Shown here: piece by piece, positions 29,318 to 31,582 of the stretch
How the letters are laid out: each line of letters opens with the position of its first letter
Numbering within the stretch: the stretch's first letter is position 1
Assembly: GCA_024278765.1 (NCBI GenBank)
Contig: JAJRSM010000068.1
Location: 1 to 48,783, forward strand
Direction: 5' to 3'
Length of the DNA stretch: 48,783 bases
Source: Deltaproteobacteria bacterium
GTDB lineage: Bacteria > Desulfobacterota > GWC2-55-46 > DRQE01
Notes under the pieces: model-generated
Seen by the model: the letters and a program-made list of their open reading frames with translations, nothing else
The model's database searches: none
Told to the model about the DNA's origin: nothing
Translations under genes and position numbers: made by a program

Positions 29318-29402
29318 AACGTAGGGCAACCCTTTAGGGTTGCGTCTTTTATCAGCCATAAAGCCAATACAAAAAAGCAAGGCTAAAGCCTTGCCCTACG
29401 TT
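29318..29402. repeat. Inverted-repeat element with matching ends
   Basis: aacgtagggcaaccctttagggttgc ... gcaaggctaaagccttgccctacgtt; outer 12 bp AACGTAGGGCAA/TTGCCCTACGTT are perfect inverted repeats. Confidence 0.75.
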
Positions 29403-29474: not shown

Positions 29475-29493
29475 TTATTCCTTTTCTTTTATT

Positions 29494-29526
29494 TGTCATC
29501 CTGAATTTATTTCAGGATCTGTCTTT
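29494..29526. repeat. REP-like palindromic element
   Basis: tgtcatcctgaatttatttcaggatctgtcttt, same family as 1196-1289 and 23897-23976. Confidence 0.8.
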
Positions 29527-29573
29527 ATTCCTTCTTAGTCTGAGTAACCAACGACAAGGATGACAGACTCTAT

Positions 29574-29707: not shown

Positions 29708-29848
29708 TTGAGTGCTTGTGCCCAAAATTGAATTTCCGTTGACTATCTGCGACGGTCACCTAAAAGTTACTCTTCATGCTACTAGCCCAGCATATTCTAT
29801 TATTCTGGATGGTTAGGTATAAGGGAATTACAGGGCATAAGCACTCAA
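29708..29848 (+). ncRNA. Predicted retron msr-msd RNA
   Basis: a1 ttgagtgcttgtgccc (29708-29723) pairs with a2 gggcataagcactcaa (29833-29848) over 16 bp with one G-U. Inside: msr-like hairpin CCGUUG-ACUAUCUG-CGACGG (29736-29755) and msd-like stem ACCUAA/UUAGGU (29758-29763/29813-29818) enclosing AUGCU/AGCAU. Ends 35 nt before the retron RT. Confidence 0.87.
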
Positions 29849-29883: not shown

Positions 29884-31518
29884 TTGAAGAATGACTTCCT
29901 CAACATTTTATCACCAGATGAATTGGCCTCTGTGTTCTCTCTCAACTATGACCAACTCGCTAAAATAATTTACGGATATCCTCCAAATATTAAATATAAA
30001 ACAATTACAATAAAAAAAAGGACTGGTGACGATAGGGTTCTTAGCATACCCTGTCGTAAGCTAAAACATATTCAAAAGAAACTAAGTGAAATTCTATATA
30101 CGATTTACGTACAGAAGCCACCTGCTCACGGTTTTTGTAAAGAGAGGAATGTAGTTACAAATGCACAGCAGCACCTAGACAAGAAGTTTATACTTAACCT
30201 AGACCTTAAAGATTTCTTTAGTTCTATCCATTTCGGGCGCGTTAAAAACATGTTCGCAAAGATGCCATATCAACTTCCCAGTAACGTGGCAACAGTACTA
30301 GCACAAATTTGTTGTCATGACAATAAACTGCCACAAGGCGCGCCTACATCACCTATTATATCCAATATGATATCTAGAAAACTAGACTCTAATTTGTCAG
30401 CCCTAGCAAAAAGATATCATGCAACCTATACAAGATATGCAGATGACATAACATTTTCATACACATGCTCAAAGAATAAACTTCCAACTGGGATGTTAAC
30501 TTATACTGATAGTGAAGTTTCCATTGGTAAAGAACTAGAGCGTGTAATTGTTGATAATGGCTTTGTTATAAATCGTTCTAAAGTTAGACTATGCACACCT
30601 AATCAAAGGCATGAAGTGACAGGATTAACTATCAATAAATTCCCCAATGTCAAGAGGTTTTATATTCGTCATATACAATCTATGTTATATGCATGGGAAA
30701 AATTCGGAGAAGAACCAGCTAAAAAACACTACGAAAAGAAGTATGCAGACACTCACAGGTTAAGAGCATCTAACTCATTACCTTCATTCCGATATGTGCT
30801 GCAAGGTAAAATCAATTACCTCAAAATGGTTCGTGGCAAGGCTGATCCTATATATCGTAAACTCGCATATAGATACAGTATTTGCATTGGGAAACCAAAA
30901 AAGTTTTTACAAGAAGATGGTTACGACAAGATAACGAATGCCCTTTATGTTTTATATAACCATGTTGATGAGAATCATGGGACTGCTTTTATGTTAAAAG
31001 GAGTTGGTCTAGTTACATGCAACCATGTCGTAGAAAGCCTCAAAGTTGGTCAAGACATTAATGGTCTTCTAGATGTATATAGTGGAAACAACCCTGAAAA
31101 AACACTTACTCTAGAGATAGTGGAAAAATTCAGTAATGATGACATAGCAATTCTTAAAATAATCGATAAAGAAAAAAAAGAACATCTACAGTATAATTTA
31201 CAACTAAGCGATAATTTAAAATTTAAAACTGGCGACAAAATAACTATTTGGGGTTTTCCAGAGCATTTAAAAGGAGACTCACCTTATTATGAGTCCTGTG
31301 CAATTACACAAGAAAAAAAGAACTATTTAGAAATTAAAAATGTATATATGATTTCAGGGACTGTTGTTCACGGTATGAGTGGTGGCCCTGTGCTAAATCA
31401 AGCTAATGAGGTGATAGGAATTATTGCCTTTGGCAGAGAAAACATAAGTGAGGCAAAAAAAACAATTTTTAATGGCTTTATCCCATGGAGGATTCCTTTG
31501 AAAAAAACCAAAGTCTGA
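29884..31518 (+). CDS. Retron reverse transcriptase fused to a C-terminal trypsin-like serine protease
   Basis: RT motifs NAQQH (NAxxH), NLDLKDFFSSI, LPQGAPTSPIISN, YTRYADDITFS, RHEVTGLTIN (VTG). Protease motifs GTAFMLKGVGLVTCNHVVE (His), NDDIAILKI (Asp), HGMSGGPVLNQANEVIGIIAFG (Ser). TTG start as given in the ORF track. Confidence 0.95.
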   Translation: MKNDFLNILSPDELASVFSLNYDQLAKIIYGYPPNIKYKTITIKKRTGDDRVLSIPCRKLKHIQKKLSEILYTIYVQKPPAHGFCKERNVVTNAQQHLDKKFILNLDLKDFFSSIHFGRVKNMFAKMPYQLPSNVATVLAQICCHDNKLPQGAPTSPIISNMISRKLDSNLSALAKRYHATYTRYADDITFSYTCSKNKLPTGMLTYTDSEVSIGKELERVIVDNGFVINRSKVRLCTPNQRHEVTGLTINKFPNVKRFYIRHIQSMLYAWEKFGEEPAKKHYEKKYADTHRLRASNSLPSFRYVLQGKINYLKMVRGKADPIYRKLAYRYSICIGKPKKFLQEDGYDKITNALYVLYNHVDENHGTAFMLKGVGLVTCNHVVESLKVGQDINGLLDVYSGNNPEKTLTLEIVEKFSNDDIAILKIIDKEKKEHLQYNLQLSDNLKFKTGDKITIWGFPEHLKGDSPYYESCAITQEKKNYLEIKNVYMISGTVVHGMSGGPVLNQANEVIGIIAFGRENISEAKKTIFNGFIPWRIPLKKTKV

Positions 31519-31548: not shown

Positions 31549-31582
31549 AAAGGGCCGCGCATCCACCCATGCGCAGCCCTTT
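31549..31582. terminator. Bidirectional intrinsic-type terminator between the retron and hcp
   Basis: AAAGGGC-C-GCGCAT-ccaccc-ATGCGC-A-GCCCTTT, A/T-flanked on both sides. Confidence 0.75.

What the first reader, a model, noticed from the sequence alone, without database searches (positions are those of the whole stretch)
29708..29848. msr-msd architecture can be drawn from sequence
a1 UUGAGUGCUUGUGCCC pairs with a2 GGGCAUAAGCACUCAA over all 16 positions with one G-U wobble. Within it: hairpin CCGUUG/CGACGG with loop ACUAUCUG (msr-like), a second stem ACCUAA/UUAGGU enclosing AUGCU-ACUAGCCC-AGCAU (msd-like), and an alternative pairing AAUUUCC(29731-29737)/GGGAAUU(29823-29829). The first G after a1 (G29730, in AAAAUUG) is a candidate branching guanosine. 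The msd would be short, roughly 60-75 nt.
Basis: partly seen in the sequence, partly recalled or inferred. Interest (0 to 1): 0.8.

Follow-up and report, generated by a model that had tools for sequence, protein, structure and literature searches.

The report
Type XI retron with supported msr-msd RNA
Just upstream of a gene fusing a reverse transcriptase to a protein-cutting enzyme lies a folded template RNA that evolution has conserved in relatives from many phyla, so this is a bacterial retron (a probable anti-phage alarm) of a known but little-studied class.

Summary
The a1/a2 repeat (29708-29723 / 29833-29848, 16 pairs, one G-U) is the only inverted repeat of 14 bp or more at spacing 90-400 in the window; chance gives none at 16 bp. 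It ends 35 nt upstream of a 544-aa ORF (29884-31518) that is a retron type XI RT-protease.

On sequence-only alignments with relatives from many phyla, RNAalifold predicts a1/a2 plus the hairpin CCGUUG/CGACGG; 19 of 20 pairs show compensatory changes, and no shuffle reaches the covariation score. A covariance model built without the window finds exactly 29708-29848 (E 2.5e-4).

Corrections: the second stem ACCUAA/UUAGGU with AUGCU/AGCAU has pairing probability 0. Comparison supports instead an inner helix AAUU/AAUU that puts G29730 where Eco2's branch guanosine sits. G29730 is plausible, but well-supported sister clades have A there, some with no G between a1 and the hairpin.

Verdict: a genuine new member of a known class. 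msDNA, branch, cDNA ends and phage defence are untested. The non-G priming position in relatives is the most interesting loose end.

The parts
29708..29723 (+). a1 arm of the msr-msd RNA (outer helix P1)
   Evidence: 16 pairs with a2, one G-U; pairing probability about 1 for 14 of 16 pairs; 13 of 13 aligned pairs with compensatory changes in relatives
29726..29729 (+). 5' strand of inner helix P1b (AAUU), pairs with 29826-29829 across a 2x3 internal loop
   Evidence: comparative: in 30 relatives anchored by hand, pairs 1-2 invariant U-A, pair 3 A-U/U-A/U-G, pair 4 A-U/G-C/U-A/C-G; not the minimum-energy pairing in the window itself (probability 0.02)
29730..29730 (+). candidate branch (priming) guanosine, directly 3' of P1b; the only G between a1 and the msr hairpin stem
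   Evidence: same structural position as rG15 of Retron-Eco2 (PMC12405507); G in 36 of 54 relatives, A in 15, C in 2, U in 1 (manual calls shown on the tree)
29736..29755 (+). msr hairpin HP1: CCGUUG - ACUAUCUG - CGACGG
   Evidence: RNAalifold on A2 and A4 predicts it from sequence-only alignments; all 6 pairs with compensatory changes in 26 sequences
29762..29774 (+). AAAAGUUACUCUU, matching the second conserved msr element of relatives (consensus AAGGUUAGCUUUA)
   Evidence: column conservation in A2/A4; short, no pair test made
29765..29824 (+). probable msd (cDNA template) region, about 50-70 nt; the 5' limit is not mapped
   Evidence: inferred from the position of P1b and from Eco2, where cDNA starts 2 nt 5' of a2; minimum-energy fold is one long imperfect hairpin 29765-29829
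29821..29829 (+). 3' junction motif AAGGGAAUU (consensus in relatives AAGNAGAAUU); cDNA synthesis expected to start at about G29824
   Evidence: conserved 3' junction in A2/A4; start point inferred from Eco2 rG15-dT1
29833..29848 (+). a2 arm
   Evidence: as a1
29884..31518 (+). retron type XI reverse transcriptase fused to a trypsin-like serine protease, 544 aa (TTG start, tentative)
   Evidence: PADLOC RT-Protease_XI PDLC02960 E 1.5e-178; Pfam RVT_1 E 3.9e-21 and Trypsin_2 E 3.3e-14
30010..30633 (+). RT domain (residues 43-250): NAxxH at 93-97, YADD 185-188, VTG 245-247
   Evidence: Pfam stretch; motifs conserved in A1; fold nearest to Retron-Eco2 9lm3, E 9.5e-27
30979..31422 (+). trypsin-like protease domain (residues 366-513) with H381, D420, S499
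   Evidence: Pfam stretch; the three residues invariant in 20 RT-proteases; fold matches DegP/DegS proteases
31552..31579 (.). GC-rich hairpin followed by TTTCTCTT, probable terminator
   Evidence: read by eye; not reported by the pattern scan

Best explanation
This is a type XI retron. The transcript of 29708-29848 folds with a1 paired to a2. The reverse transcriptase encoded 35 nt downstream binds it and primes cDNA synthesis from the 2'-OH of a nucleotide next to the end of the a1/a2 helix, most likely G29730. It copies the msd from about G29824 leftwards for some 50-70 nt and so makes a branched RNA-DNA (msDNA). The msDNA-RT complex holds the fused trypsin-like protease inactive. Phage infection disturbs the msDNA or the complex and releases the protease, which cuts host or phage proteins and stops the infected cell. 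Shown here: the RNA structure by covariation, its link to the gene, the RT and protease domains with their catalytic residues. Inferred from other retrons: priming, msDNA, silencing and activation, defence.
For: Gene class. Chance excluded. Covariation of a1/a2 and HP1 on sequence-only alignments: (covariation score 0.769 against 0.348 shuffled and 0.147-0.245 slid). The model built without the window finds 29708-29848 exactly, E 2.5e-4, next hit E 0.53, and finds held-out relatives upstream of their RTs. In the 55 loci compared with a detected hairpin, mostly RT-protease or close RT relatives, an a1/a2 stem of different sequence lies close upstream of the RT. A close pair, L101 and L182 (RT 68% identical), keeps the a1/a2 stem although both arms differ. 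Guard or silencing model: Retron-Eco2 assembles a self-inhibited RT-Toprim-msDNA complex (PMC12405507).
Against: No msDNA, transcript or phenotype was measured. Only one member of the host's class (63 genomes searched) carries it, so function in this host cannot be argued from conservation. No clear promoter: promoter-like matches are fewer than in shuffles. The start codon is TTG. The protease substrate is unknown and no partner gene is adjacent. In the window itself the inner helix P1b is not the minimum-energy pairing.
Confidence: 0.9

Rival explanations
1. The RNA is that of a decayed or silent retron: structure and gene are ancestral, but the copy makes no msDNA in this host.
For: Sporadic occurrence (1 of 63 genomes of the class), weak promoter, TTG start, departure of the 3' junction from consensus (AAGGG for AAGNAG).
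Against: The ORF is intact with all RT motifs and the protease triad; a1/a2 is perfect, which drift would have broken.
Confidence: 0.06
2. The RT acts like a defence-associated (DRT-type) RT on this RNA, without a 2'-5' branch, and the a1/a2 stem only positions a template or regulates the downstream gene.
For: Priming was not tested; sister RTs lack G at the expected priming position.
Against: The profile, sequence and fold matches are to retron RTs, Eco2 first; retron motifs NAxxH and VTG are present; the ncRNA has retron architecture.
Confidence: 0.06
3. The inverted repeat is an ordinary terminator, attenuator or mobile-element end.
For: Genome-wide repeats lie 300 nt upstream.
Against: The loop is 109 nt, no T run follows, the repeat is not among the genomic repeats, and it is conserved with covariation upstream of RT genes in many phyla.
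Confidence: 0.01

Closest known systems
Retron type XI (RT-Protease, PADLOC PDLC02959/PDLC02960; classification of Mestre et al. 2020, paper not held)
   Same: RT fused to a trypsin-like protease over the whole profile, E 1.5e-178; ncRNA directly upstream.
   Different: Nothing found that sets it apart from the class; a published ncRNA model for this type could not be checked.
Retron-Eco2 (Ec67), type I-C, RT-Toprim
   Same: Nearest solved relative by sequence (E 5e-52) and fold; single fused gene; a1/a2 stem, first G at its inner end (rG15), one msr hairpin soon after.
   Different: Effector is Toprim RNase, not protease; the inner helix and junction motifs differ (AAUUG and AAGNAG-AAUU against CAG-AUUU and GGAG-UGCC).
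Retron type XII (RT-TIR)
   Same: Second-best PADLOC type for the RT part (E 6e-121).
   Different: C-terminal TIR instead of protease.
Nuclease-protease pairs in Hachiman, Avs, Lamassu and DRT systems (PMC12799240)
   Same: Trypsin-like protease fused to a defence enzyme.
   Different: There the protease is N-terminal and paired with an adjacent metallo-beta-lactamase-fold pro-nuclease; no such neighbour here.

Membership tests
Retron type XI | Retron RT with NAxxH, YxDD and VTG motifs | tested here: met
   N93-H97, YADD 185-188, VTG 245-247
Retron type XI | RT fused to C-terminal trypsin-like protease with catalytic triad | tested here: met
   PDLC02960 E 1.5e-178; Trypsin_2 E 3.3e-14; H381, D420, S499 invariant in 20 sequences
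Retron type XI | Upstream ncRNA with a1/a2 inverted repeat and msr hairpin(s) | tested here: met
Retron type XI | Priming guanosine next to the inner end of the a1/a2 stem | tested here: inconclusive
   G29730 is present at the expected place, but the position is A in sister clades; no branch mapped
Retron type XI | Produces branched msDNA | not testable with these tools
   needs RT-DNA isolation and debranching
Retron type XI | Anti-phage activity through the effector | not testable with these tools
   needs plaque assays in a laboratory strain
Retron type I-C (Eco2-like) | C-terminal Toprim domain | tested here: not met
   C-terminus is Trypsin_2
Rfam RNA family | Match at gathering score | tested here: not met
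   no match in the region; only a chance-level snoRNA match elsewhere

The most novel reading that the evidence does not exclude
In two or more lineages of RT-protease retrons that surround the window's RT on the tree, the priming nucleotide is not G. L101, L013, L039 and L106 have no G between the a1 helix and the msr hairpin, and the position of the window's G29730 is A in clades supported 100/98 and 100/100. These retrons would start cDNA from the 2'-OH of an adenosine, or prime in another way; all 14 such RTs carry Phe at the residue five after the YADD motif (residue 193), where most G-type RTs have Thr or Ser and the window has Tyr.
Probability: 0.3. Interest if true: 0.6.

Novelty: new member of a known kind. 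Interest (0 to 1): 0.4.

Why it matters
It supplies a covariation-supported template RNA with coordinates for a retron class (RT-protease, type XI) for which I found no experimental study in the open library, so msDNA production, the effector's trigger and its protease substrate become directly testable. The comparison also shows that the supposedly fixed priming guanosine is replaced by A in related retrons, a point that bears on how retron RTs choose their branch nucleotide; the 2019 review names one earlier exception, Retron-Sen1, with no apparent priming guanosine (PMC6868368).

Tried and rejected
Single-protein scans of genome contigs and viral contigs found nothing because the patterns were drawn from unconserved stretches; alignment queries then worked. 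Rfam has no family for this RNA. RNAalifold on the 26-sequence alignment recovers only the msr hairpin, because a1/a2 lengths vary; a subset of 14 recovers both. Correlation of Phe193 with A at the priming position looked striking but is confounded with ancestry: only three independent pairs on supported branches, one informative, not significant. The promoter scan was uninformative. Papers by Mestre 2020 and Khan 2024 are not held, so whether a type XI ncRNA model is already published could not be checked. The pair counts use helices chosen because they pair, so they are illustration; searches are the test, with the caveat that their structure came from the same alignments.

Full report
What the sequence shows. 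The stretch 29708-29848 carries a1 and a2 exactly as described: 16 pairs with a single G-U. In 48.8 kb it is the only inverted repeat of at least 14 bp at spacing 90-400; simulations give 0.2 at 14 bp and none at 16 bp. The RNA is much more stable than shuffles (z -5.5). The element ends 35 nt before an ORF of 544 aa on the same strand.

The neighbour gene. The ORF matches PADLOC RT-Protease_XI over nearly its whole length (E 1.5e-178), Pfam RVT_1 and Trypsin_2, and in the PDB retron Eco2 first. Retron motifs NAxxH, YADD and VTG are present. H381, D420 and S499 are invariant in 20 RT-proteases. An AlphaFold2 model (mean pLDDT 86.7) matches retron Eco2 with its RT part (E 9.5e-27) and DegP/DegS proteases with its C-terminal part. 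So this is a type XI retron by gene content. Of 63 genomes of the class searched, only this one has it, which fits horizontal transfer.

Relatives and covariation. Relatives came from plasmids (L012-L019), genomes (L003-L011, L021-L100) and viral contigs (L101-L257). Most RT-protease relatives have a stem of 9-22 bp with different arm sequence, spanning about 110-165 nt and ending close upstream of the RT start, usually well above shuffled controls. On a subset of 14 with flanks it finds a1/a2 (29709-29721 / 29835-29847) and the hairpin (29736-29742 / 29749-29755); 94.6% of cells pair, 19 of 20 pairs have a change on both sides, covariation score 0.769 against 0.348 in shuffles and at most 0.245 when slid. 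A covariance model built from 23 relatives without the window finds 29708-29848 exactly as its best hit (E 2.5e-4; next 0.53); most of its information is sequence, since only 7 pairs were modelled. In held-out loci its matches lie upstream of the RT. A close pair of relatives, L101 and L182, keeps an a1/a2 stem while both arms change.

Corrections to the drawing. The second stem (ACCUAA/UUAGGU around AUGCU/AGCAU) has pairing probability 0 and the energy model prefers one long imperfect msd hairpin, 29765-29829. The pairing AAUUUCC/GGGAAUU is at about 0.01. Relatives point to a short inner helix next to a1/a2...AUU in the 5' strand with AAU... in the 3' strand, pair 3 varying A-U/U-A/U-G and pair 4 A-U/G-C/U-A/C-G (anchored by hand). 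In the window this is AAUU 29726-29729 with AAUU 29826-29829, and G29730 follows it directly. In Eco2 the branch guanosine rG15 is linked to dT1 (PMC12405507); [quoted passage not shown] By that analogy cDNA here would start at about G29824. After the hairpin relatives share AAGGUUAGCUUUA; the window has AAAAGUUACUCUU at 29762-29774.

The priming position. I assigned by eye the base directly 3' of the inner helix in 54 relatives and placed it on an RT tree: G 36, A 15, C 2, U 1. The A-type rows fall mostly in two well-supported clades, {L101, L012, L013, L022, L026, L102} (100/98) and {L145, L039, L043, L106, L045} (100/100), close to the window on the tree, though the forks joining them to the window are weaker (82-90). 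L101, L013, L039 and L106 have no G between a1 and the hairpin. So either A primes, or priming differs there, or the position is not the branch site in that branch of the family. The 2019 review calls the priming guanosine conserved but excludes Retron-Sen1 for lacking an apparent one. All 14 A-type RT-protease-clade RTs have Phe at residue 193; G-type RTs mostly Thr/Ser, the window Tyr, L029 (G) Phe. Shared ancestry explains this as well as function does.

Mechanism. Best reading: a self-contained retron in which the msDNA-bound RT keeps the fused protease silent until infection. The RNA fold and gene identity are shown; branch, msDNA, silencing, trigger and defence are inferred from Eco2 and other retrons. 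No adjacent partner gene was seen: neighbours are TonB-system genes, a TonB-dependent receptor, a hybrid-cluster (Prismane) protein, a hemerythrin-like protein and a molybdopterin oxidoreductase, so the protease substrate is probably a host or phage protein encoded elsewhere.

Verdict. Observation confirmed; interpretation right in kind and partly wrong in detail. A new member of a known class; the non-G priming position in relatives is worth an experiment.

Noticed in passing
window 29318-29402 and about 29490-29533: An 85-bp palindromic element and a short repeat (about 37 bp, CATTGCGAGGAACGCAGTGACGTGGCAATCT) upstream of the retron are interspersed repeats: 55 matching places in the host genome.
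   Followed up: partly
L101 2272-2412, L013 1191-1325, L039, L106: msr-msd RNAs of RT-protease retrons with no G between the a1 helix and the msr hairpin; A stands at the expected priming position.
   Followed up: partly
L101, L012, L013, L022, L026, L102, L039, L043, L045, L103, L105, L106, L110, L145 (RT residue 193 of the window's numbering): Phe directly after YADD[I/L]TFS in every A-type RT of the clade; Thr or Ser in most G-type RTs, Tyr in the window.
   Followed up: partly
L004 1411-2985: An RT of a neighbouring clade whose C-terminal part is not a protease but looks like a restriction-endonuclease-type domain.
   Followed up: no
L016, L017, L025, L027, L028, L030: Cyanobacterial relatives with close ncRNAs but no protease: a shorter RT gene (350-405 aa); in two annotated plasmids (L016, L017) a hypothetical protein and an ATPase gene follow.
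   Followed up: no
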